From Procambarus clarkii (lineage: Eukaryota > Arthropoda > Malacostraca > Decapoda > Cambaridae): a stretch of DNA of 64,000 nucleotides. The stretch spans positions 3,533,232 through 3,597,231 of the forward strand of contig NC_091209.1 in NCBI RefSeq assembly GCF_040958095.1, written 5' to 3'. The notes beneath the pieces were generated by a model. It saw nothing but the letters and a program-made list of their open reading frames with translations, had not been told where the DNA came from and did no database searches. This document shows, piece after piece, positions 8,661 to 22,389 of this stretch. Each line of letters opens with the position of its first letter. Position 1 is the stretch's first letter. The position numbers and the translations under genes were made by a program.

Positions 8661-9189
8661 TGTGACTCTGTAGTGGACAACCCCATCTTAAAGTATGTTC
8701 CAGCAGAGGTTCAAGAAAGTGATGAAGTTTCTCCTCCGATTTTGGTGACCACCCGTGCACAAGCTGCACGCCCACAACCAGCTGACACTACTGCAACCGC
8801 TGTCCCTCAAGACCATCCGAACCTACCACCGAATCGTACTATGTTGAAATTCCGTAAGTTACAGAGGGAGGATCCTTCATTAACACCATTATTCTTCCAG
8901 GCTGAGATTCAACCTGACAGTATCCCTGGGTTCTTCCTAGAGAATCAGTTGCTCTACCACAGGTACAGACCCAGTAAGCTGACGGAGGATGACGAGTGGG
9001 CCAATGTCGACCAACTAGTTGTTCCCACCAGCCTGCGGCCCGAAATTCTACACCTGGCCCATGGAGCACTTTCTCACTACGGTTTTAATATGACCTATCA
9101 CGCCATCAGATAAGACTATTACTGGCCAGGTATGGTTAAAGATGTGAAAATCTATGTACAGCAGTGTCATACATGTTAGATGGCAGGTA
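8661..9189 (+). pseudogene. gypsy integrase, N-terminal zinc-binding domain
   Basis: After a linker (TTRAQAARPQPADT) comes LVVPTSLRPEILHLAHGAL, SHYGFNMTYHAIR, a stop, DYYWPGMVKDVKIYVQQCHTC and another stop. This is the HHCC zinc-binding domain with H, H, C and C visible. It follows protease directly with no RT between them, which shows that integrase comes first. A BEL/Pao element interrupts the frame at AGGTA (9185-9189); it resumes at 18607 with KPNISIPRAPLTPIP. Confidence 0.8.
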
Positions 9190-10881
9190 TGTGGGAAAAT
9201 TTTACCCACCATATCTAATAATCATCTAAGAAATGTATAATTTCTATATCATATCAAAATCATATCTAAATCGTATCAAAATCAAATTAGAATCATGAAA
9301 GATTCATTATATAGCTTGATCCTGGATGACAATGGCACCATGAACACGTACGCAACAGGGGCCCTTTTGATGCCTACGTGACTTTGTACATGATCTTTCA
9401 AGGATCCAGAAGCTTCTAGAAGGACTTCTTAATTAAAAAACTATTGGAACATTGATTCAACATCCGGTAGGATTAAAAATCGAATCCTTAATAAGATCCA
9501 GTGGTACTTTCAAATACTACTTATAATCTTTAAATCTTATATCTAATTATATTATAATCACATCTTATCTTAATCATAAGTCTAGACTGTAAAAATAATC
9601 AATCAATATTCATAGAAGGCTACCGTGCTCAGAGAGCATGGCAGGGCGATGGGGGGAGTGAAGCGCCCACCAACAAGCCCAGCGGACTCCGCGTTTGTTT
9701 ACAATTGAGTGAACAAGTGACTGATCCTTAGCGAACATTACCAGCTCAAGGACACCTTATCTAATATTTTTTATCGCCAGTGAATACTCTCTAGAACTGG
9801 GGGAGTACCTGGACAATATCTACAAGGAAAATCCTAGAACATTCACATAAAATAGAGTGTATAGTGGAGATCAGTGACACGGTTTCCTCCACCTTCATTC
9901 ATAAACTTTTATCTCGAATCATTCTTCTGCAACTGCAGGATAATCACGTAGCAACGCTACCAGATCATCATACAGCAACGCTGTAGCAAAATATCGTGCC
10001 TAAACTCAACAAGAGAGAGTTAATCAGTCTGGCAAACTTGTCAGACAGGCACCCCGACTGGCAGAGAAGTATATTGAAGGTTATTTGGTATATGATTGGC
10101 CAATTGTATGCTTGTGTAGCTTTAATATCCTATAAATCTGTCTGTTGGTTAAAAAGCGAGGCTAAGCCTCACATTTCAGTAAGTTTATTAAAATTGTAGT
10201 GTAGCTGTGAATCTTATCCAAGCACTGAACCTCATGAGTGTCCATTCTGTCAGAAAAGAATTCAGCCTCAATAAGTAAAAACCTCACAAGTGTCCACAGT
10301 CTTGGAAGAGATTCAGTCAAGCTAACTGTATAAATTGAATATGTCTGCATATATATTTGAATATATAAATTAAGTTATCAATTGCTTACTTAGTTAATTT
10401 TTAAGTTATCATATAAGTTCATTTAATTGAATATAATTTCTAGTACTAAGTTAATAGTATTAAGACTACATTTAAGGTCATTTATTTATACTTTTACAAT
10501 TTAATTTGTTGTTTATAGTATAAGAACATATTGGCTGTTAAGTTATGGTGCTAGGTTAGACTATGTATGTTTAAATCCCTGATTTAAACAGAGCCAGTGT
10601 TCAGTCAGATAACTGAATTTATCAAATCTTATCCTTGTATAAAATACAAGCTGATGTGAGATCCCTGTCTACAGGTGGATTGGAACTTCTATCAACTAAG
10701 TCATTCACCCCACCTGTCCCTTACAGCCCACAGTTTGTCATTAGGAAAAGAGGAATTAGGATTTACAACCCTAGCTAGAGATTTTAGTTGAATTAATTTG
10801 CAGACAGTAAATTTTTAATTTAGTTCAGTACAAGTCCCTGGTAGTCTCCTCTTATATCAATCCCAGCAGGTTTTTCCCACA
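9190..10881 (+). repeat. BEL/Pao 5' LTR
   Basis: 1692 bp, with the terminal inverted repeat TGTGGGAAAA...TTTTCCCACA. It contains a non-conserved open frame at 9996-10199 that is repeated exactly in the 3' LTR and looks fortuitous. The constant offset of 7725 bases to the 3' LTR shows no net length change. Confidence 0.95.
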
Positions 10882-10885
10882 TTAA

Positions 10886-10899
10886 TGGTCCTTCGAACC
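10886..10899 (+). promoter_or_regulatory. Candidate BEL/Pao primer-binding site
   Basis: TGGTCCTTCGAACC starts four bases after the 5' LTR. It begins with TGG, the complement of a tRNA CCA end, as expected for a minus-strand primer site. I could not match it to a specific tRNA. A near-repeat, TGGTCCTTTGTACC, lies about 24 bases downstream. Confidence 0.5.
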
Positions 10900-12123
10900 T
10901 AGATAATAATGGTCCTTTGTACCTAGATATTTATGATCATTCGTTTACCGAATATTTCAATGCCAAATACATAAGAAACTTCTTGATTTTGCATTGGAAT
11001 AATTCTTACATATTCTGGCCTAACCTAGCTATCAGCCAATATTTATCATAGCTATATATCTAAGTAAACAAATAGTTTGCAGTGGCTTAAGCCACCATAT
11101 CCATTAACTAGTAAGCATTCATAACAAACTGATACTGTTTTGTGTTAAGAAACCTCAGTACTTAATTATATCAGTGTCAAAGACACAACTGCATCTTAAT
11201 CATAAATATCAATTATCTACCTCATTGTGGTAACATTACATATATATTTAAGTGTATTATCTAGTATTATCTCTAATCTACTGATTTTCAGAGCTGCTCA
11301 TTACATAATATTCTTTAAAAAAGTGTTATCACTGTAAGAGCATTCATTACAATCTAACCATAATATACTGTACATACCCTATAACAGGTAAAACCAGTAG
11401 GCATTCTACTGTATTTTATCAATCAATTATTATGGTAACAGATTTTGTAATAACTTTGCAAAAATAGTGCCATTTACTATTTTTAAAAAATTATTACAAG
11501 ATTTACCAACTTGGTGCATTCGTGCATTCGGGTCACAAATCAAATTATTACAATACTTTTGATAATTGAACACCTGCTACAACCAGATTCCAGGGAGGAA
11601 ATGAAGGACGATCTTTGGAATCATTACCTAAGTAGACAGGAAAGCTCATTTATCAAAATACATTAACATCAACATATTCATCAGAAAAAAGAGAAAAATC
11701 TCGGAATCTCCGAAACTCGGAAAAGGTCAAAATGACTAACAGTATTCCACCAGCAGCTGAAACAGAAAAGAAAAGGACACAAAGTGTCTAAAAAAATCAC
11801 TTGAATCTACAGCCTACAGACCATTTAAATCAGGTGATAGACAAATGTCATCATCACTTGGCTACAATAGTCTACAATTGGGGATTAAGACCAATCTTAA
11901 TCTCACATCACAATCTGAAAGGCTAACAACACATTGACAATGTCAATACAAATATTATCATCCATCTAAGATAACTATCTTAATCCAAGAATATAGTCTT
12001 GATCACCTAATCTCATGCTTTCACTGGAGTGAAAGCAGCCTCAGAAAATCTGAAGTTAATCAAGCATCTCAAAGAGACTTACTTAATAGAAAAGGCAAAG
12101 CCGAGAAAAAAAGCAAAAGCAAA
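10900..12123 (+). other. BEL/Pao leader, possible degraded start of gag
   Basis: About 1.2 kb between primer site and gag-pro ORF. A short ATG frame at 11732 (MTNSIPPAAETEKKRTQSV) stops after 19 codons. The adjacent frame is open from about 11762 to a TGA at 11935, and the gag-pro frame is open from 11938 onward, upstream of its first ATG at 12124. I do not recognise a usual BEL Gag N-terminal domain. Either Gag is divergent here or its start is broken by a -1 shift and a stop. Confidence 0.45.
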
Positions 12124-13449
12124 ATGCTTCATCACATCATGAATAATGTAGATACACATTATTACAGATACAATTCATCCTTTAAGGAAATCCTTGGAGG
12201 AGTACAAGTGTTACATGCTTGTATGACCTACTTGCATGTAATTACTTACCTACAAGTTTTACATACTTGTAACAACATCTTATCACAAAGCCAAATCTTT
12301 GATGGACTTCGAGCTTACGTACAAAGATTACGAAGCCGAGGAAAACTTAGATCTCAAGAAAAAATCCCCAAAGGTGAATCCACGGACAAAAATAAAAATG
12401 TCCAGAATGGCAGTCAAAAATCAAGGCAACAAAATTCCTCTTCTGCAAAGTGGAAACAGAATAATGTTGGCTCTTATGCTATATCCCCCACAGTTAACAG
12501 AACTGTAGGAAACCAAGCTCCTAAGACAGATAAGACAAAAGGAGCTACAAGTGCCCCAAAATGTTTATTCTGTCAAGAAGCACATACCATTTATCAATGC
12601 ACAGTTTATGAAGGCCGTGCCAGTCGAATCGATCGACTGAAATCTCTGAACAGGTGCATCCGTTGTTTACGGAAGCACAATACAAGTGAGTGTAACACTC
12701 CATTGCAAAACTGCCAATATTGTCATAAAAGTGTTCATCACACAGCACTCTGTAGTGATATTAACACTCAATCCAGATCACAGACTTCCAATAATCAACC
12801 TACATCTCAGGCAAAGCCCAAAGATGATAATACCACAACAGCCGTACAATTCTGTACAGTAATGAGCAATGTCAACGACTTGGATACAGAAATTGTTACA
12901 ACAGCCATATTGCCTACTGCACAGCTAGAACTATGCAATCAAGGAATTTGTATTCCAACTAGAGGCTTTTTTGATCAAGGGTCACAGAAAACCTTTATCA
13001 GTAAAAAGATGGCAGAAGATTTACAACTTAAATCTTCAAAGCAAGTATCTACATCTATATCAGGGTTTTTTACTAATTCTGGTCGTAGAACCTTTCCAGT
13101 AGTAAAACTCAATGTCTGTCTAGGTACATCCCAAAGGACAGTAGAAGCCATAGTAGTTGATAAAATTCCTACTGAAATGGAAGTGACTGGTCTGACAGCC
13201 ACAATTAAATTCCTAAAAGAAAAAGGAATCCAATTAGCAGATCCTCTACTTGATTCTGACTACATAGGGGATATCGGAATCCTGATTGGAGCTGACTACT
13301 ATCATCGATTCATTCTGGGATCAGAAGAATCTATGGGTATGAATATACTCAAATCAGCAGGAGGCATATTGATGACAGGACCTATACTAGATCTTGAACC
13401 TTCAACTCCTGAAAAATCACATCATACAGAAACTGTAATAGTGGCATGA
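12124..13449 (+). CDS. BEL/Pao Gag (C-terminal part) and aspartic protease
   Basis: A 441-residue frame. Residues about 140-220 hold the nucleocapsid-like zinc-binding cluster (CLFCQEAHTIYQC, RCIRCLRKHNTSEC, CQYCHKSVHHTALC), which packages element RNA. Residues about 255-420 are a retropepsin-like protease of the Pao type (peptidase A17): the active site reads FDQGSQKTFI, D-Q-G instead of the commoner D-S-G, and ILIGADYYHRF lies downstream. The ATG may not be the true start because the frame stays open upstream to 11938. It ends in UGA, followed by CUAG, and pol continues in the same frame. Confidence 0.8.
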   Translation: MLHHIMNNVDTHYYRYNSSFKEILGGVQVLHACMTYLHVITYLQVLHTCNNILSQSQIFDGLRAYVQRLRSRGKLRSQEKIPKGESTDKNKNVQNGSQKSRQQNSSSAKWKQNNVGSYAISPTVNRTVGNQAPKTDKTKGATSAPKCLFCQEAHTIYQCTVYEGRASRIDRLKSLNRCIRCLRKHNTSECNTPLQNCQYCHKSVHHTALCSDINTQSRSQTSNNQPTSQAKPKDDNTTTAVQFCTVMSNVNDLDTEIVTTAILPTAQLELCNQGICIPTRGFFDQGSQKTFISKKMAEDLQLKSSKQVSTSISGFFTNSGRRTFPVVKLNVCLGTSQRTVEAIVVDKIPTEMEVTGLTATIKFLKEKGIQLADPLLDSDYIGDIGILIGADYYHRFILGSEESMGMNILKSAGGILMTGPILDLEPSTPEKSHHTETVIVA

Positions 13450-13453
13450 CTAG
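13447..13453 (+). promoter_or_regulatory. In-frame UGA CUAG: candidate stop-codon readthrough site
   Basis: The Gag-protease frame ends GTG GCA TGA CTA GGC. The next codons stay open in the same frame through the whole pol. UGA followed by CUAG is the best known leaky-stop context in animal mRNAs. Readthrough would make a Gag-Pol fusion without a frameshift. The motif is seen directly; its use is inferred. Confidence 0.65.
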
Positions 13454-13485
13454 GCAAAGAACAGTCACCACTTAAAATCCCCCAC

Positions 13486-16400
13486 ATGATTGATGATGGA
13501 TTAGAATCTGTACATCAATTGTGGGAACTTGATGCCATAGGAATAATTCCTGAACAACCAAGTCCTGATGATGTCTGTGCATACAATCAATACTTAGAAA
13601 CTGTACAGTACCATGATGGACAGTACTGGGTAAGGCTACCATGGAAAATCAACCATAAAACCTTACCTACCAATTATCACATGGCTTATAGTCAATTTAA
13701 ATCGCAACTAGCAAAGCTAAGAAAAAGGCCTGAGCATTTAAAACTCTATCATGAGATTATTGCTCAACAATTAAAGAATAAATTCATCGAAGTCGTGAAA
13801 CATGACAATAAGCAAACAGGCCATTTTTTACCTCACATGGCTGTAATGAGAGAATCAAAAACGACTCCTTTACGGATAGTTTTTAATTGTAGCTCTAAAT
13901 CTGGACCCCAAGGAACCAGTCTAAATGATTGTTTGCAAACAGGTCCAAGTCTAACTCAGAAATTGTATGACATACTGTTGAAGTTTAGACTTAACAAATA
14001 TGCGTATTCAGCAGATATAAGTAAGGCCTTTCTAAGAGTTGGCTTACAAGAAGAAGATAGAGACTTCACTAAGTTTCTATGGGTAGAGAACCCAGAAGAT
14101 ATCAATAGTCCTCTAGTGACTTTCAGATTCTCATCAGTTCTTTTTGGGGCGACAAGTAGTCCATTTCTGTTGCAAGCAACTCTAGATACTCATCTGAAGA
14201 AATCATCAAGTCCCTGTAAGACTGAAATCAGTCAAAATCTATATGTAGATAATTTTCAAGGGACAGTTAACAGTACTACTGAACTGTTACAATTATATCA
14301 AGAGGCCAACAAGGAGCTACAAGGTGCCAACATGCCACTACAATCTTGGGCCTCTAATAATGCAACATTGAATAATCAAATAGCAAGAGATTACCCTGAA
14401 TATCACGTACCAGAATCACAAAAGGTGTTAGGTATGGATTGGGATTTAATCTCGGACACAATATCGATCAAATCCGTGCCAGTAAATTACAACATCACTA
14501 CAAAAAGGGATTTGCTTTCACAAGTTAGCAAAGTATTCGACCCACTTGGTCTACTAAATCCTTTGACTATCAAGTGGCGTTTATTGGTGCAACAAGCATG
14601 GAAAGCTAAGGTTGGTTGGGATGATCCACTACCAATCCAGTTACAAAAAGCTTGGATGGAAGTGGCTCAAAAACAAACTTTAGTTGAAAAGATAATCTTT
14701 CCGAGACACATAGTCGAGGAAAATGAGGAAGTATCACTACATGTATTCGCAGACTCGTCAGCCAAAGCTTTTGGAGCTTGTGCTTACTTAGTGACTTCTA
14801 ATCAATCATATCTTATCACCTCTAAGGCCAGAGTCGCTCCATTAAAAAAGAGGACTTTGCCTCAGATGGAACTAACAGCACTGCTAACTGGAACACGCTT
14901 AGCAGTGCATATCAAACAAGTCTTGTCTACCATGAACATCAAAGATGTCATTATATGGTCTGACAATGAAGCTGTCTTACAATGGGTACGAAACGACAAC
15001 TGTCCAACTCCATATGTAAAAAATCGAGTCTCGGAAATTAAAGAAATTTCCGCAGGCTTTCAATTGTTGCATGTACCAACGAAGGATAATCCAGCTGATC
15101 TCTTATCAAGAGGTATGACATTTAAACAATTCGCAAAGGCAGATATTTGGTTTCATGGGCCTCGATGGTTAGTGAATGGTAGTTGGCCTGAACAAAAGCC
15201 ACACGTCATTACGACACAAACCATAACTACCACCAGGCAGCAAGCTCAAATATCAGTCTTGGATTGTACTCGTTACTCCTCGCTCATCAAATTAATCAAT
15301 GTAACACAGAACGTGTTTCATTATCTCAGGAAAAAAGGTATAAAATACACTTTTCCAGATGCACTTCTCTATTGGGTAAGACAAGCCCAGAGAGAAACTT
15401 ATGGGAATAACTATGAAAATCTTCCGCATAAGTTAAAACACAATCTCGGTCTGTGGATAGACCAAGAAAATCACAACATTCTGCGTTGTGGAGGGAGACT
15501 TAAACACGCAGATATCAATCTAGATACCGTGCATCCATGGCTTTTACCAAAAAATCATTGGATCACAAGGTTGATTGTGTTGCATACACATCAACAAATC
15601 ATCAAACATGGAGGAGTGTTAGACACACTCACACAAATCAGACAGCAGTACTGGATTCCTCAGGGAAGACAGTCAGTCAAATCAATCTTGAAGAATTGCA
15701 TGATATGCCGAAGGTACGATGCAAGAACTTGCTCTTATCCAGGGCCACCACCCCTACCAAAGGAACGAGTGGTCCAACTACAACCTTTCGAAACGACAGG
15801 AGTAGATTATACAGGAGCAATATATCTAACAGGGACTGCAGATAAGCAACCTATCAAGGCATACATCTGTCTGTTCACCTGTGCTACCACCAGGGCAGTA
15901 CATCTAGAGGTAACACCCGATATGACTGCTCAATCATTTATTCAAGCTTTCCGCAGATTCGCAGCACGCCGATCATACCCTAAGCTGATGATTTCAGATA
16001 ACGGAGCAAACTTGGTAGCTGGAGAAGCATGTCTACGGGAAATCTGTTCCCATCCTGCAGTTACTTCCACACTGGAACAGCGTCATTGCAGATGGAAATT
16101 TATCCCTCCGAGAGCCCCATGGCACGGAGGATTTTATGAACGGTTAATAGGAACTGTAAAAAGATCCTTGAGAAAATCTCTACACCGTCAGAAAATCAAT
16201 CTTCAAGAACTCCAGACAGTAATCACGGAAATAGAATCAAGGGTGAATAACCGGCCGTTGACTTACTTGTCTGAGGATCCTACTCAACATGAGCCATTAA
16301 GTCCTGCCCACCTAATGTATGGAAGACTTCTGTCTCCAGTACCATCTCTAGTGGATGATGAGATCAGAGATCCCTCATATGTGGGTCAGAGCGAGTTGGT

Positions 16401-16848
16401 TCAGGGGTATAAGCATCTGTCCAGCATAATCCAAAAATGGAATGATGTTTGGACAAAAGAATATCTTACATCTCTACGAGAACATCACTATGGGGCTAAT
16501 GTCCCACATAATATATCTAATCTCCAACCTGGCGATATTGTCTTGGTAGACAGTGATGGCCCTAGGGCTGACTGGCCATTAGGTAAAGTTGTCTCAGTCC
16601 ATCCAGATAGTCAGGGGATTTTGAGAATAGTCAAAATCCTGTCTAAAGGAACAACTTCCCTGAAGACATTGGACAAACTCATCCACATGGAATCAGTGAG
16701 CCAGCTGCAGTTAGATCCTGAGAGACCTCAAGACACTCTAACTCCACAAGACCCACAGACTCCTAACAGACACAATCGTCCACAACGGACAGCAGCAGAA
16801 AAGTGCAAGCAAAATTTGCACTTGTATTATCAATCCAATGGAGAGTAA
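13486..16848 (+). CDS. BEL/Pao Pol: reverse transcriptase, RNase H, integrase
   Basis: An 1120-residue uninterrupted frame that is in phase with gag-pro (open from 13450; first ATG at 13486). RT: ADISKAF with the first catalytic Asp near residue 177, and the second motif reads LYVDNFQG near 252-258, YVDN where most RTs have YVDD. RNase H about 418-560: FADSSAKAFG, MELTALLTG, WSDNEAVL and DNPADLLSRG. Integrase: zinc finger about 699-745 (H, H, CMIC), then the DDE core with Asp in GVDYTG (about 773), Asp in SDNGANL (about 838) and Glu in FYERLIG (about 885). A C-terminal module (GDIVLVDSD) typical of the family follows. All integrase catalytic residues are present. Complete for the family apart from YVDN. 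Confidence 0.93.
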   Translation: MIDDGLESVHQLWELDAIGIIPEQPSPDDVCAYNQYLETVQYHDGQYWVRLPWKINHKTLPTNYHMAYSQFKSQLAKLRKRPEHLKLYHEIIAQQLKNKFIEVVKHDNKQTGHFLPHMAVMRESKTTPLRIVFNCSSKSGPQGTSLNDCLQTGPSLTQKLYDILLKFRLNKYAYSADISKAFLRVGLQEEDRDFTKFLWVENPEDINSPLVTFRFSSVLFGATSSPFLLQATLDTHLKKSSSPCKTEISQNLYVDNFQGTVNSTTELLQLYQEANKELQGANMPLQSWASNNATLNNQIARDYPEYHVPESQKVLGMDWDLISDTISIKSVPVNYNITTKRDLLSQVSKVFDPLGLLNPLTIKWRLLVQQAWKAKVGWDDPLPIQLQKAWMEVAQKQTLVEKIIFPRHIVEENEEVSLHVFADSSAKAFGACAYLVTSNQSYLITSKARVAPLKKRTLPQMELTALLTGTRLAVHIKQVLSTMNIKDVIIWSDNEAVLQWVRNDNCPTPYVKNRVSEIKEISAGFQLLHVPTKDNPADLLSRGMTFKQFAKADIWFHGPRWLVNGSWPEQKPHVITTQTITTTRQQAQISVLDCTRYSSLIKLINVTQNVFHYLRKKGIKYTFPDALLYWVRQAQRETYGNNYENLPHKLKHNLGLWIDQENHNILRCGGRLKHADINLDTVHPWLLPKNHWITRLIVLHTHQQIIKHGGVLDTLTQIRQQYWIPQGRQSVKSILKNCMICRRYDARTCSYPGPPPLPKERVVQLQPFETTGVDYTGAIYLTGTADKQPIKAYICLFTCATTRAVHLEVTPDMTAQSFIQAFRRFAARRSYPKLMISDNGANLVAGEACLREICSHPAVTSTLEQRHCRWKFIPPRAPWHGGFYERLIGTVKRSLRKSLHRQKINLQELQTVITEIESRVNNRPLTYLSEDPTQHEPLSPAHLMYGRLLSPVPSLVDDEIRDPSYVGQSELVQGYKHLSSIIQKWNDVWTKEYLTSLREHHYGANVPHNISNLQPGDIVLVDSDGPRADWPLGKVVSVHPDSQGILRIVKILSKGTTSLKTLDKLIHMESVSQLQLDPERPQDTLTPQDPQTPNRHNRPQRTAAEKCKQNLHLYYQSNGE

Positions 16849-16908
16849 ATAAATACATATGGTTACTATTGTCCTAAGTATTGGACTCTGTGCCAGTTCT
16901 CTCCCTCT

Positions 16909-16914
16909 GGAAGA
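16909..16914 (+). promoter_or_regulatory. Short polypurine tract before BEL/Pao 3' LTR
   Basis: GGAAGA directly precedes the TGTGGG start of the 3' LTR, where plus-strand priming would occur. It is short for a polypurine tract, so the call rests mainly on position. Confidence 0.5.
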
Positions 16915-18606
16915 TGTGGGAAAATTTTACCCACCATATCTAATAATCATCTAAGAAATGTATAATTTCTATATCATATCAAAATCATATCTAAATCGTA
17001 TCAAAATCAAATTAGAATCATGAAAGATTCATTATATAGCTTGATCCTGGATGACAATGGCACCATGAACACGTACGCAACAGGGGCCCTTTTGATGCCT
17101 ACGTGACTTTGTACATGATCTTTCAAGGATCCAGAAGCTTCTAGAAGGACTTCTTAATTAAAAAACTATTGGAACATTGATTCAACATCCGGTAGGATTA
17201 AAAATCGAATCCTTAATAAGATCCAGTGGTACTTTCAAATACTACTTATAATCTTTAAATCTTATATCTAATTATATTATAATCACATCTTATCTTAATC
17301 ATAAGTCTAGACTGTAAAAATAATCAATCAATATTCATAGAAGGCTACCGTGCTCAGAGAGCATGGCAGGGCGATGGGGGGAGTGAAGCGCCCACCAACA
17401 AGCCCAGCGGACTCCGCGTTTGTTTACAATTGAGTGAACAAGTGACTGATCCTTAGCGAACATTACCAGCTCAAGGACACCTTATCTAATATTTTTTATC
17501 GCCAGTGAATACTCTCTAGAACTGGGGGAGTACCTGGACAATATCTACAAGGAAAATCCTAGAACATTCACATAAAATAGAGTGTATAGTGGAGATCAGT
17601 GACACGGTTTCCTCCACCTTCATTCATAAACTTTTATCTCGAATCATTCTTCTGCAACTGCAGGATAATCACGTAGCAACGCTACCAGATCATCATACAG
17701 CAACGCTGTAGCAAAATATCGTGCCTAAACTCAACAAGAGAGAGTTAATCAGTCTGGCAAACTTGTCAGACAGGCACCCCGACTGGCAGAGAAGTATATT
17801 GAAGGTTATTTGGTATATGATTGGCCAATTGTATGCTTGTGTAGCTTTAATATCCTATAAATCTGTCTGTTGGTTAAAAAGCGAGGCTAAGCCTCACATT
17901 TCAGTAAGTTTATTAAAATTGTAGTGTAGCTGTGAATCTTATCCAAGCACTGAACCTCATGAGTGTCCATTCTGTCAGAAAAGAATTCAGCCTCAATAAG
18001 TAAAAACCTCACAAGTGTCCACAGTCTTGGAAGAGATTCAGTCAAGCTAACTGTATAAATTGAATATGTCTGCATATATATTTGAATATATAAATTAAGT
18101 TATCAATTGCTTACTTAGTTAATTTTTAAGTTATCATATAAGTTCATTTAATTGAATATAATTTCTAGTACTAAGTTAATAGTATTAAGACTACATTTAA
18201 GGTCATTTATTTATACTTTTACAATTTAATTTGTTGTTTATAGTATAAGAACATATTGGCTGTTAAGTTATGGTGCTAGGTTAGACTATGTATGTTTAAA
18301 TCCCTGATTTAAACAGAGCCAGTGTTCAGTCAGATAACTGAATTTATCAAATCTTATCCTTGTATAAAATACAAGCTGATGTGAGATCCCTGTCTACAGG
18401 TGGATTGGAACTTCTATCAACTAAGTCATTCACCCCACCTGTCCCTTACAGCCCACAGTTTGTCATTAGGAAAAGAGGAATTAGGATTTACAACCCTAGC
18501 TAGAGATTTTAGTTGAATTAATTTGCAGACAGTAAATTTTTAATTTAGTTCAGTACAAGTCCCTGGTAGTCTCCTCTTATATCAATCCCAGCAGGTTTTT
18601 CCCACA
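16915..18606 (+). repeat. BEL/Pao 3' LTR
   Basis: 1692 bp, the same length as the 5' LTR and identical wherever I compared the two. It ends TTTTTCCCACA, then AGGTA (the target duplication), after which gypsy integrase resumes. Confidence 0.95.
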
Positions 18607-18965
18607 AGGTAAACCTAATATCTCTATTCCCAGGGCTCCGTTGACTCCTATCCCAGTGCCTTCGGAACCTTTCCACAGGCTCATTATAGACTATGTTGGT
18701 CCTTTACCCCGGACCAGTTCTGGCAACGCCTATATACTAGCTATCCTGTGTCCTACCACCAGATTCCCCATAGCAGTTCCCGTAAAGAACATTACGGCTG
18801 CTACTATGGTGAAACAACTATTGAAGATCTTCACCCAGTATGGATTTCCAAGAGAGGTTCAAAGTGACTGTGGCACCAACTTCACCAGTGATCTCTTCAA
18901 GAAGACGCTGGAAGAGTTCAACATCACTCAGGTATTGTCCAGCCCCTATCATCCTGCTTCACAGG
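18607..18965 (+). pseudogene. gypsy integrase catalytic core, first part
   Basis: Continues the integrase from 9189. It shows PFHRLIIDYVGPLPRTSSG with the first catalytic Asp, PTTRFPIAVPVKNITAATMV and REVQSDCGTNFTSDLF with the second Asp, ending VLSSPYHPASQ. The frame is then cut by a solo LTR whose target duplication ACAGG lies at 18961-18965. It resumes at 20291. Confidence 0.85.
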
Positions 18966-20285
18966 TGTTACGACCCTGGGTTCCTCAGTGGAAACCAGAG
19001 GTCAAAATTGAGCTAAATAAACTACCTTTTAGTAGAGGGATGCATGGCGAGGTGCATATCTTCCCTGCCAGATGTAAGACTATTCTTGTTTCTCAAAGAG
19101 CATTTAAAGACTGAGCTTGGGGTTGATTATTAAATAATAAAATAGGCACCAACTATGTTTACTAATACTTTCTAATCATTTGTAAAGTAAACCTGAGTAA
19201 ACTTGGGATAGGAATGCTGTACGATTAGTTGAGTAGTCTGCTGGCAGCGAGTGAACTGAGGGAGGGGAGTGGAGACGCTCAGCCTTCTCTGGGTGGCGTT
19301 CGTGGGGATCAAGACTTTTCTGAGCTGCTCTGCACTCCTCTACCTTTCCTCTTACTTATTTCCCTTACCATTAAGTTAAGTCCTGTGTTTTTTAAGTGTG
19401 CCTACTCTGGGTTTGTAAGATTGGTGGAGACCTTGGGGTTGAATTTGCCAGTGTTTTGGGTACCCATTAGTGTTGTGTTGTGTTACAACCCGTTCTCGCA
19501 AATTTAACAAGTCAATATTGACTTATTAAATATGTGCATAGGTGACATACTTAACATAATAGATACCCTTAAAAAGATTCATAGAAAACACCGACCTTAC
19601 CTAACCTACTTAGTATGTTAAGATAAGCATCTTATTGCTTCGTAATTACAATTATTACCTAACCTATAATAGGTATAGGTTAAGTAATATTTGTAATTAC
19701 GAAGCAATAAGATGCTTATCTTAAGATACTAACAAGGTTAGGTAAGGTCGGTGTTTTCTATGAATCTTTTTAAGGGTATCTATTATGTTTAGTATATCAC
19801 CTATGCACGTAGTTAATAAGTCAATATTGACTTTACGAATTTGCGAGAACGGGTTGTGTGTTAAGGTACCACGTGGGCTCACTACCCCCTAAGCTGCCCA
19901 AGCTTCAAGTGCTTCACTAGTAGTACTTTACCCTAGCTTGTTCTCAGTGTAAACCTTGTATCCTGTTTATGTGGACCAAGGCTTTTAACGTAAGATAGTG
20001 TGGTAAAGTAATTATTATTATTGTTATTGGTGTGAATGTATATGGGGGGTTGTTAAGGGGTTAATAAATAAGTAAGTTAGTAAAGGAGTATCCATTCTTC
20101 CTGTGTAGGAGATCTATGATCAACCTATAGACTAACATTGTGTTGCCAATTAATATTCACTGTGGATATTTTACTTGGGGGCCGGGCCTTTTAGATCTCC
20201 CATATTCGATAACTCTCAATGCTAACTACTGACCCTACATCCATTTATACTAGATCCCCCATAGTACAGACTCCCATTTTTAACA
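18966..20285 (+). mobile_element. Solo LTR inserted in gypsy integrase
   Basis: It begins TGTTACGACC and ends TTTTTAACA (TG...CA ends with an inverted TGTTA/TAACA). It is flanked by the 5-bp duplication ACAGG at 18961-18965 and 20286-20290. It has no coding content. A second copy in reverse at 23986-24974 shares the ends and most of the body, supporting a distinct LTR family. It contains a 371-bp palindromic MITE, which explains most of the length difference. Confidence 0.85.
19486..19856. mobile_element. Palindromic (foldback) MITE inside the solo LTR
   Basis: A 371-bp near-perfect palindrome. The outer ends are CAACCCGTTCTCGC and GCGAGAACGGGTTG; the arms continue about 180 bases to a centre near 19670. 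It is flanked by the 7-bp direct repeat TGTGTTA (19479-19485 and 19857-19863). The reverse copy of the host LTR at 23986-24974 lacks it. No coding capacity. Long TIRs with a 7-bp duplication suggest a DNA transposon derivative, but I cannot assign the superfamily. Confidence 0.8.
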
Positions 20286-20290
20286 ACAGG

Positions 20291-22389
20291 GTTCTCTTCA
20301 ACGTAGTCACCAAACGATTAAATCACTCCTAAAGAAATTTTGCAATGAAACCATGAAAGACTGGGACAAACAACTTGACATCATCATGTGTATTTTCAGA
20401 AGTCTCCCAAATGAGTCTCTAGGAGTATCTCCTTATGAGATGCTCTACAGACGTAAGTGCCATACTCCTCTCAAAGCTTTTAAAGACTCTCTGCGTGATA
20501 CCTCCTTCAGTGACCCTCTGAATGTGCCCCAGTTTCTTCAAAACTTAAAGCACATTCTCGAGAGAGTGCGTAAATTTGCCAACACCAATTTGTTAAAAGC
20601 TCAAGATAAAATGAAGACTCATTTTGACCAGCGCAGTAAAATTAGGAAATTTCAACCAGGAGACTTCGTTCTAGCATATTTTCCAATTCCTGGTTCTCCA
20701 TTGCAACACAAGTCTTCAGGACCATACCGCATCAAGGAGTGCAGAAACAACCACAACTACGTTCTTGAGACTCCAGATAGGCGGCGGAAGACCCAGTTGT
20801 GCCACGTCAACCTCCTGAAGCAGTATCAAGGTACTCCCCCCACTGTGTTAGTCTCATTATCCACATTTCAAGGTCCATACCTCCACAGTGAGACCTTCCC
20901 TGCTTCTCCTCCCAGCACTAACAATGTGTCAGTGCCTTCCAACTCGGAAATCCTAACTGATCTTCATAAATATTTGCAGGACTGTAATAGTGCTCCTCTC
21001 ATCAGAATCTTCAATCAGAAGTTGTTCAGCGATGATCCACAAGAGTGCAATGTGGTTCAGCACGACATCCAGCTACTTCCTGACACCCGGCCGATTCGTC
21101 AACCTTTCTACCGAATCAGCCCGAGCAAAAAGGAAGTTATGCGTGCTAAAGTACAGTACCTCCTGGATCATAGGCTGGCCACCCCTTGTGAGTCCCCTTG
21201 GGCCTCACCTTGCATCTTGGTGCCGAAACCGCACGGTAAAGTGAGGCTGTATACCGACTACAGGAAATTGAATCTTGTGACTGTCAAGGATGCTTACCCA
21301 TTACCTAGAATAGATGACATCCTTGACGCCATTGGTAATGCTCGGTATTTATCCCAACTAGACTTACTCAAGGGATACTACCAAGTGTGTTTGACAGAGC
21401 GAGCTAAGGAAATACCTGCCTTCACCACTCCTTTTGGCCTTTACAGATATGAACGCCTTCCATTTGGACTATGTAATGCCCCGGCCACCTTCCAGCGATG
21501 TGTCAACCGCGTCATCCATGGCTTAGATCACACCTACGCCTACTTGGATGATATCGTTATGGCAACTAACACCTGGGACGAACATCTGCTCCAGCTGCAC
21601 CGATTGTTCGCCAAGCTCCTGACAGCCGGCCTCACCATCAACTTGGGCAAGTCCACCTTTGCTAAAGGTAAAGTGCGTTATCTTGGTCATGTGATAGGGA
21701 GTGGCAGCCTAGCTCCGTTAAACATACACACTCAAGCCATCCAGCATTACCCACAGCCTACCACCAGGAAGCAGCTCCTACGCTTCCTTGGTCTTGCCTC
21801 CTACTACCGTAGGTTTGTGAAGAATTTTAGTACGGTAGCGACACCATTGATCACTCTAACCAGCCCCATGCAACGGTATCATTGGACCATTCAGCAAACC
21901 ATTGCTTTTGAACAACTAAAATCTCTGCTCTGTTCTAATCCCATTCTCGCTTCGTCAGATATCACGAAACCCTTCATCCTCCATGTCGACGCCAGTGGCA
22001 CCGGCATCGGGGGCGTCCTAATGCAACAACGAGGCGAGGAGGTTCTTCCTGTTAGCTACTACAGCTACAAGTTGAAGCCACACCAAAAGAACTACAGCAC
22101 TATCGAAAAGGAACTTCTCTCCATCGTCCTGAACTTACAGCACTTTGAGTCTTACCTACAAGATACACGGTCTACCACCATCTACTCGGACCACAATCCC
22201 CTACGCTTCTTGCAGCAAGCCCAATTCAACAATCAACGACTTCTACGATGGGCTTTGTATCTGCAGAATTTCAACCTGGAAATCTTCTACATCAAGGGTT
22301 CTGACAACATCATAGCAGACTCCCTCTCCAGAGTCTATGAGGTAGAGGCAGCTACACATACCACTCTACCATCTGAAGGAGTAACTTAA
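20291..22389 (+). pseudogene. gypsy integrase C-terminus, reverse transcriptase and RNase H
   Basis: A long open frame (ATG-led part 20353-22389, 678 residues). It begins in integrase: the position of the catalytic Glu reads GSLQRSHQTIK, with Gln where Glu is expected. A GPY/F module follows (SSGPYRIKECRNNHNYV, about residues 120-160). RT spans about 245-430 with YPLPRIDDILDAIGNARYL, LDLLKGYYQV, RLPFGLCNAPATFQR and the catalytic YLDDIV (about 397-402). RNase H spans about 540-660 with FILHVDASGTGIGG, IEKELLSIV, YSDHNPLRFL and IIADSLSR. One continuous frame reading integrase then RT shows the Gmr1 order directly. RT and RNase H look intact, but the element cannot be autonomous. Confidence 0.88.

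What the first reader, a model, noticed from the sequence alone, without database searches (positions are those of the whole stretch)
13441..13490. BEL/Pao Gag-Pol joined by an in-frame UGA CUAG: predicted stop readthrough
The Gag-protease frame ends TGA CTAG and pol continues in the same frame with no second stop. BEL/Pao elements often have a single Gag-Pol frame; a lone UGA in the known leaky context UGA-CUAG is unlikely by chance and suggests translational readthrough to set the Gag to Pol ratio. A fresh point mutation is the alternative.
Basis: partly seen in the sequence, partly recalled or inferred. Interest (0 to 1): 0.75.

Follow-up and report, generated by a model that had tools for sequence, protein, structure and literature searches.

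The report
Leaky stop codon in BEL/Pao retrotransposons
A jumping-element gene is interrupted by one stop codon set in a well-known leaky sequence; many copies and two distant relatives in the same genome keep the same stop, which suggests that ribosomes are meant to read through it now and then to make the element's enzymes in a limited amount.

Summary
At 13447-13449 an in-frame TGA, followed by CTAGGC, separates a nucleocapsid-protease frame from an open 1132-codon pol frame of a BEL/Pao element (9190-18606). It is not a private mutation. In the window's own genome (4.03 Gb) the junction pattern with the stop left free had 652 matches; 100 were listed, 85 TGA and 15 TGG. In a second BEL family (about 56% amino-acid identity, silent sites near saturation) 100 of 100 listed matches, of 415, are TGA. 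In a third, 7 of 7 readable junctions are TGA CTAGGC. Of 11 leucine codons kept in all three families, only the CTA after the stop has the same codon in all three. The TGG copies form one clade. Best reading: programmed UGA-CUAG readthrough makes Gag-PR and, less often, Gag-PR-RT-RH-IN. Two corrections: the stop lies after protease, and the window copy belongs to an amplified gag-less subfamily, so it cannot make full Gag. Translation was not measured. The mechanism is known from Tj1-type Ty3/Gypsy elements, gammaretroviruses and alphaviruses; my searches of open papers showed no report of it in BEL/Pao.

The parts
9185..9189 (.). 5-bp target-site duplication AGGTA, left
9190..10881 (+). 5' LTR, 1692 bp, TGTGGGAAAA...TTTTTCCCACA
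   Evidence: 0 differences from the 3' LTR
10886..10899 (+). primer-binding-site-like TGGTCCTTCGAACC; its match to a tRNA-Tyr 3' end is recalled, not tested
   Evidence: sequence and place; 24-nt repeat at 10883-10930
11938..13446 (+). open frame with three Cys-His boxes and the protease (DUF1758) domain; DUF1759 Gag domain missing in this copy
12273..12273 (+). edge of the gag deletion or replacement: gag-bearing copies are homologous only from here on
13447..13449 (+). in-frame UGA stop, proposed readthrough codon
13450..13455 (+). CUAGGC readthrough context
13440..13472 (+). predicted hairpin that includes the stop; not shown to be conserved
13481..13525 (+). predicted hairpin downstream of the stop; not in the predicted fold of the second family
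13450..16848 (+). pol frame: RT, Pao-type region (Peptidase_A17 model), integrase, DUF5641; ends at TAA
16915..18606 (+). 3' LTR, 1692 bp
18607..18611 (.). target-site duplication AGGTA, right

Best explanation
The UGA at 13447 is a programmed leaky stop of a BEL/Pao lineage. Most ribosomes end there and make Gag-nucleocapsid-protease. A minority decode UGA with a near-cognate tRNA, helped by the 3' context CUAG, and make the full Gag-PR-RT-RNase H-integrase protein, so enzymes are made in a smaller amount than Gag. Shown here: the in-frame stop, its context, its persistence in three families of one genome, and open pol frames behind it. Inferred: that the stop is read through, how often, and that the ratio matters. 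The window copy carries the signal but has lost the DUF1759 part of gag, so it would depend on other copies for Gag.
For: Stop, context and open frames. The motif equals one that drives readthrough in mammalian mRNAs; the same paper gives UGA_CUAGGC for OPRL1, Ross River and Getah viruses (PMC4132726, passages). Own family: 652 pattern matches, 100 listed, 85 TGA and 15 TGG. Second family: 39 of 39 readable junctions (40 fetched) TGA; 415 pattern matches, 100 listed, all TGA; of the 150 scored Peptidase_A17 hits (40 of them fetched, 39 proved to be of this family) 63 pol frames are exactly 1128 aa and none exceeds 1132, so none of the 150 is seen fused. Third family: 7 of 7 readable junctions (8 fetched) TGA CTAGGC. 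Divergence, one copy per family: 56 to 69% amino-acid identity; four-fold sites equal at 15/35, 17/35, 16/42; of 11 shared Leu columns only the CTA after the stop has one codon in all three; overall 20 of 67 degenerate residues do. In 8 of 9 gag-bearing own-family TGA loci examined the frame is open from the locus edge into the TGA, with DUF1759 in the one scanned. First Met after the stop is pol residue 13 in the window but 78 in the second family, against initiation at a fixed AUG. A one-codon length difference just after the stop keeps the frame.
Against: No translation data. 15 of 100 listed own-family matches carry TGG; they form an older clade (mean pairwise 3.0% against 1.6%) that multiplied, so the stop is not strictly needed for spread, or those copies were moved by others. 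The listed pattern rows are all zero-mismatch rows, which favours young copies. No conserved RNA structure was found: the fold around the stop has z -3.96, but a similar value (-4.15) is only the 5th lowest of 161 overlapping windows of the same element, whose mean is -1.37, and the three-family fold has a covariation term of +3.11 with 1 of 31 pairs changed on both sides. All three families come from one genome. The Sinbad paper speaks of a large single polyprotein for the BEL/Pao elements it compared (PMC554778, passage), so the stop is not general in the superfamily.
Confidence: 0.87

Rival explanations
1. Pol is made by another route and the UGA is a strict stop: a spliced RNA that skips it, internal initiation, or A-to-I editing of UGA to UGG.
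For: In Tca2 of Candida, which also has a gag-UGA-pol junction, the flanking sequence did not direct readthrough in S. cerevisiae (PMC2194720, passages). A predicted hairpin includes the UGA, as an editing site might. Genomic TGG copies exist.
Against: No conserved AUG near the start of pol. The pol frame and the CTA codon are kept. TGG copies are one clade, not scattered as repeated copying of edited RNA would give. Splicing was not tested.
Confidence: 0.08
2. The stop is a neutral lesion of a defective lineage that spreads because other copies supply Pol.
For: The window copy is gag-less, and that subfamily has multiplied: 22 of 35 TGA loci examined (the window copy among them) share the whole gag-less stretch and one more shares part of it. 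A sense-codon clade exists.
Against: Gag-bearing copies of the own family have the same TGA, and so do two other families at near-saturated silent divergence. None of the 150 scored Peptidase_A17 frames exceeds 1132 aa.
Confidence: 0.04
3. A fresh point mutation private to this copy, or a sequencing error.
For: The LTRs are identical, so the insertion is young.
Against: 652 pattern matches in the genome, with 85 of the 100 listed TGA.
Confidence: 0.005

Closest known systems
Tj1, Tosmo1-3 and Tcry1 (Ty3/Gypsy elements of fission yeasts)
   Same: In-frame TGA between Gag and Pol with a kept context GAA TGA CT (CTA or CTG); Pol ORF of Tj1 lacks an AUG; removing the stop made Tj1 inactive (PMC10085805 and PMC4600332, passages).
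   Different: Another superfamily and kingdom; stop lies before protease, here after it; here the full CTAG is kept in all three families.
Gammaretroviral gag-pol readthrough (murine leukaemia virus)
   Same: Same frame, one stop, readthrough gives Gag-Pol as the minor product (PMC8310308, passages).
   Different: UAG with a 3' pseudoknot, stop near the start of the protease; here UGA-CUAG after protease and no conserved structure found.
UGA-CUAG readthrough of OPRL1, OPRK1, AQP4, MAPK10 and of alphaviruses
   Same: The same UGA_CUAGGC is given for OPRL1, Ross River and Getah viruses (PMC4132726, passages).
   Different: Cellular C-terminal extensions or a viral polymerase, not Gag-Pol.
BEL/Pao retrotransposons (Belpaoviridae, Semotivirus)
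   Same: Domain order, Pao-type region, triple Cys-His box, target duplication.
   Different: [quoted passage not shown] LTR of 1.69 kb exceeds its 0.2-1.2 kb.

Membership tests
BEL/Pao (Belpaoviridae) | LTRs with a short target-site duplication | tested here: met
BEL/Pao (Belpaoviridae) | Pao-type pol: PF05380 with RT before and integrase after it | tested here: met
   Peptidase_A17 8.7e-30, RVT_1 1e-8, Integrase_H2C2 7.3e-10, DUF5641 4.3e-12; rve 4.1e-6 is below its cut-off
BEL/Pao (Belpaoviridae) | Gag with DUF1759 (recalled as a BEL Gag domain) and a triple Cys-His box | tested here: inconclusive
   Three boxes read in the window translation. DUF1759 absent in the window copy, present in one gag-bearing own-family copy (3.4e-23) and one second-family copy (5.9e-22)
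BEL/Pao (Belpaoviridae) | Active-site words DSG (protease) and YVDD (RT), named as hallmarks in the Sinbad paper (PMC554778, passages) | tested here: inconclusive
   The window reads FDQGSQ and YVDN: the exact words are not met, while the profile matches hold
BEL/Pao (Belpaoviridae) | tRNA primer-binding site | not tested
   TGGTCCTTCGAACC follows the LTR; tRNA identity recalled only; the ICTV profile names tRNA-Arg or tRNA-Gly
Programmed stop-codon readthrough | UGA in a known leaky 3' context | tested here: met
Programmed stop-codon readthrough | Conserved coding frame continues in frame after the stop | tested here: met
Programmed stop-codon readthrough | Stop and context kept between divergent relatives | tested here: met
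   exceptions: TGG in 15 of 100 rows, CTTG in 1 of 39 junctions
Programmed stop-codon readthrough | Readthrough product or measured efficiency | not testable with these tools
   no translation data held
Gammaretrovirus-type readthrough | Conserved 3' pseudoknot or stem | tested here: inconclusive
   local folds, not shared or supported by covariation; pseudoknots not modelled

The most novel reading that the evidence does not exclude
A whole branch of BEL/Pao elements sets its Gag-PR to Pol ratio by UGA-CUAG readthrough, and the two halves split by the stop have each become mobile on their own: gag-less PR-UGA-Pol copies such as the window's, and Gag-PR-only families whose frame ends just after protease. 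They may supply each other in trans, a division of labour that the leaky stop made possible.
Probability: 0.25. Interest if true: 0.75.

Novelty: new variant of a known kind. Interest (0 to 1): 0.62.

Why it matters
BEL/Pao is a main LTR-retrotransposon class of animals (recalled), and the ICTV profile calls its replication poorly understood. A leaky stop with a defined seven-base signal, kept over near-saturated divergence, gives a testable answer to how such elements could hold Gag above Pol. It would show that the UGA-CUAG signal of mammalian genes and alphaviruses was also recruited by animal retrotransposons. The TGG clade is a natural comparison for what losing the stop does.

Tried and rejected
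Fresh mutation: rejected by other copies. A stimulatory RNA structure: locally good folds, but similar windows occur elsewhere in the element, the second family folds otherwise, and there is no covariation support; not claimed. Internal initiation at a fixed AUG: not supported. A fused frame in a third-family copy (1641 aa): the stretch is withheld and reads N (L112), so it is no evidence either way. Searches in viral contigs, prokaryote contigs, plasmids and phages gave no confirmed relative; these tools warn that records of the window's own genome may be left out. PF05585 hits in the genome were meant to give another Gag-Pol family; the 16 looked at were Gag-PR-only. The unbiased codon count for the third family did not complete. 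Literature searches. No title or abstract start shown there was about readthrough in BEL/Pao, and no row shown had both the BEL/Pao term and the readthrough term; the lists were cut (30 of 60, 15 of 18, 1 of 1, 15 of 63, 0 of 0, 10 of 72 papers shown) and most listed papers were not opened. The library holds open-licence PMC papers only; Repbase was not searchable.

Rows dropped: L023 had no junction match (1 of 40); L112 withheld (1 of 8); L082 left out of the tree for length; 13 of 15 TGG and 35 of 35 TGA loci entered the divergence means. One of the 35 TGA loci is the window copy itself (L047). The comparison of lesions in 12829-15200 (20 of 35 TGA and 3 of 15 TGG loci free of extra stops and frameshifts, tallied by hand, one TGA locus having an in-frame gap; Fisher p 0.029) is biased, because 30 of the 35 TGA loci were best matches to the window and some loci align only in part; I give it little weight. 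Searches repeated 96 and 117 by mistake.
Full report
What is there. The window holds an LTR retrotransposon at 9190-18606: LTRs of 1692 bp with no difference between them, a 5-bp target duplication AGGTA on both sides, and a primer-site-like stretch after the left LTR. It sits inside a Gypsy-type element: an integrase core lies just to its right (rve 2.8e-13), RT and RNase H further on, and a weak integrase zinc-domain match (below cut-off) just to its left. Its own pol matches Pfam RVT_1, Peptidase_A17, Integrase_H2C2, rve (below cut-off) and DUF5641, the BEL/Pao order. The frame 11938-13446 carries three Cys-His boxes (read) and a DUF1758 protease match. It ends at TGA 13447-13449, and pol continues in the same frame to TAA at 16846.

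Is it chance? In the window 1 of 1141 forward TGA triplets is followed by CTAG, this one, and 1 of 1336 reverse ones. Of 730 single-base ways to a stop elsewhere in codons 12124-16845, one gives TGA-CTAG. The longer context UGA CUAGGC is given in PMC4132726 (passages) for OPRL1 and for Ross River and Getah viruses; that paper reports that deleting CUAG made readthrough almost undetectable in four mammalian genes. These odds alone do not settle the matter, since the site was picked out because it looked striking.

Other copies. A pattern with the stop codon left free (NNN) had 652 matches in that genome with up to 3 mismatches, and 0 for the reversed control. The 100 listed, all without mismatch, were 85 TGA and 15 TGG, with no other codon. 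The other 552 were not shown, and zero-mismatch rows favour young copies. I fetched the 15 TGG loci and 5 listed TGA loci, besides 30 loci of the DNA search (40 scored of 1283 candidates); one of the 30 is the window copy.

The TGG copies. They are about 94-95% identical to the window, more diverse among themselves (3.0% against 1.6%), and one clade in 98% of bootstrap trees (14 TGG, 35 TGA and 4 second-family rows; the bootstrap had not fully settled, two TGA copies lie near the base, and the TGA group itself has no support, 42/0). With two other families carrying TGA, one change from TGA to TGG is the simplest history. That clade did multiply, so the stop is either dispensable or was bypassed with help from other copies. 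By contrast, in Tj1 of fission yeast a construct without the stop was inactive (PMC4600332, passages).

Second family. The Peptidase_A17 search scored 150 of 4988 candidates. 63 of the 150 pol frames are exactly 1128 aa from stop to stop, and none exceeds 1132. I fetched 40 of these 150 at the junction: 39 readable, all of one family, TGA in 39, CTAG in 38; one has CTTG, and two depart just after CTAG. The other 110 were not fetched. A free-codon pattern gave 415 matches; all 100 listed are TGA. The upstream frame, examined in 4 copies, runs 658, 659 and 658 aa into the TGA in three and 295 aa in the fourth, and has DUF1759 and aspartyl-protease matches in the one scanned.

Third family. The DUF5641 search scored 150 of 3720 candidates and showed a recurrent 1134-aa frame (7 rows). 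The only frame above 1135 (1641 aa) lies over a withheld stretch. Of 8 fetched junctions 7 were readable, all TGA CTAGGC.

Divergence. With one copy per family and 145-147 codons around the stop, amino-acid identity is 56.5, 55.9 and 69.0%, and four-fold sites agree at 15 of 35, 17 of 35 and 16 of 42. 67 degenerate residues are the same in all three families, and 20 of those use the same codon. Of 11 leucine columns only the one after the stop does (CTA). A length difference of one codon just after GG keeps the frame. The stop has therefore stayed while silent sites were nearly randomised and pol stayed open.

Where Gag went. Gag-bearing own-family copies align to the window only from 12273 on. 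Of the 35 TGA loci, 11 show this edge, 22 (the window included) share the window's whole gag-less upstream stretch, 1 shares it in part and 1 begins later. Of 9 gag-bearing TGA loci examined, 8 have a frame open from the edge of the locus into the TGA, 549 codons, with DUF1759 (3.4e-23 in the one scanned); the window's remnant has none. The window copy is thus one of an amplified gag-less subfamily.

How it works, shown and inferred. Shown: position, context, conservation, open frames. Inferred: most ribosomes stop and give Gag-PR, and a few read UGA and give Gag-PR-Pol. That tryptophan is among the residues inserted at UGA, and that TGG is its codon, is recalled knowledge. Initiation at a fixed AUG is not supported (first Met at pol residue 13 in the window and 78 in the second family). 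Splicing and editing are not excluded; one TGG clade argues against frequent copying of edited RNA. RNA structure is not established: window 13420-13539 has z -3.96, 13450-13600 z -2.10, a similar value ranks 5th of 161 overlapping windows in the element, and the three-family fold is not supported by covariation.

Against what is known. In-frame TGA with a kept CT(A/G) context between Gag and Pol is described for fission-yeast Ty3/Gypsy elements (PMC10085805, passages). UAG readthrough is classic in murine leukaemia virus (PMC8310308, passages). [quoted passage not shown] The BEL/Pao survey PMC3118150 has no occurrence of readthrough, stop codon or frameshift in its main text (word search). 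Searches showed no title or abstract start on readthrough in BEL/Pao; the lists were cut and the library holds open-licence papers only, so this is not proof of absence. Two differences stand out: the superfamily, and the place of the stop after protease, so that protease belongs to the abundant product.

Side finding. The DUF1758 hits in the genome that I looked at (16 loci of 150 scored) lie in two groups of elements with a Gag-PR frame that ends just after protease (TAG after MPADKQYQ; TAATAA after a word like GRNTAE). No RT was found by tblastn behind the first group (8 loci); the second group was seen only for about 450 bases (8 loci). Together with the gag-less subfamily this suggests that each half can travel alone; whether they help each other is a guess.

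Noticed in passing
L095-L102 and L103-L110 (G000): Two groups of BEL-like elements whose Gag-protease frame (recurrently 663 or about 660-680 aa) ends just after protease with TAG or TAATAA; no RT found behind the first group.
   Followed up: partly
window 11800-12272: The window copy belongs to an amplified gag-less subfamily: 22 of 35 TGA loci, the window included, share this whole stretch, which replaces the DUF1759 part of gag.
   Followed up: partly
window 18536-22389: The Gypsy-type element around the BEL element has its integrase core (rve 2.8e-13) and integrase C-terminal match upstream of RT and RNase H, the reverse of the usual Ty3/Gypsy order; a likeness to Gmr1-type elements is recalled, not tested.
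   Followed up: partly
G000:C10:471315-617553: Six own-family junction matches on one strand, four of the five gaps about 18-20 kb (one 70 kb), as in a segmental tandem array.
   Followed up: no
window 10883-10930: The primer-binding-site region is present twice in a 24-nt direct repeat, 88% alike.
   Followed up: no
window 13450-14802 (RT) and 12963-13446 (protease): RT active site reads YVDN rather than YVDD, and the protease site FDQGSQ rather than DSG.
   Followed up: no
window 19485-19857: 184-nt inverted repeat, 93% complementary with a 5-nt spacer, downstream of the element.
   Followed up: no
window 12130-12290: Strongest local RNA fold among the 161 windows scanned (z -6.05 for the 120 nt from 12160), at the gag deletion edge.
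   Followed up: no
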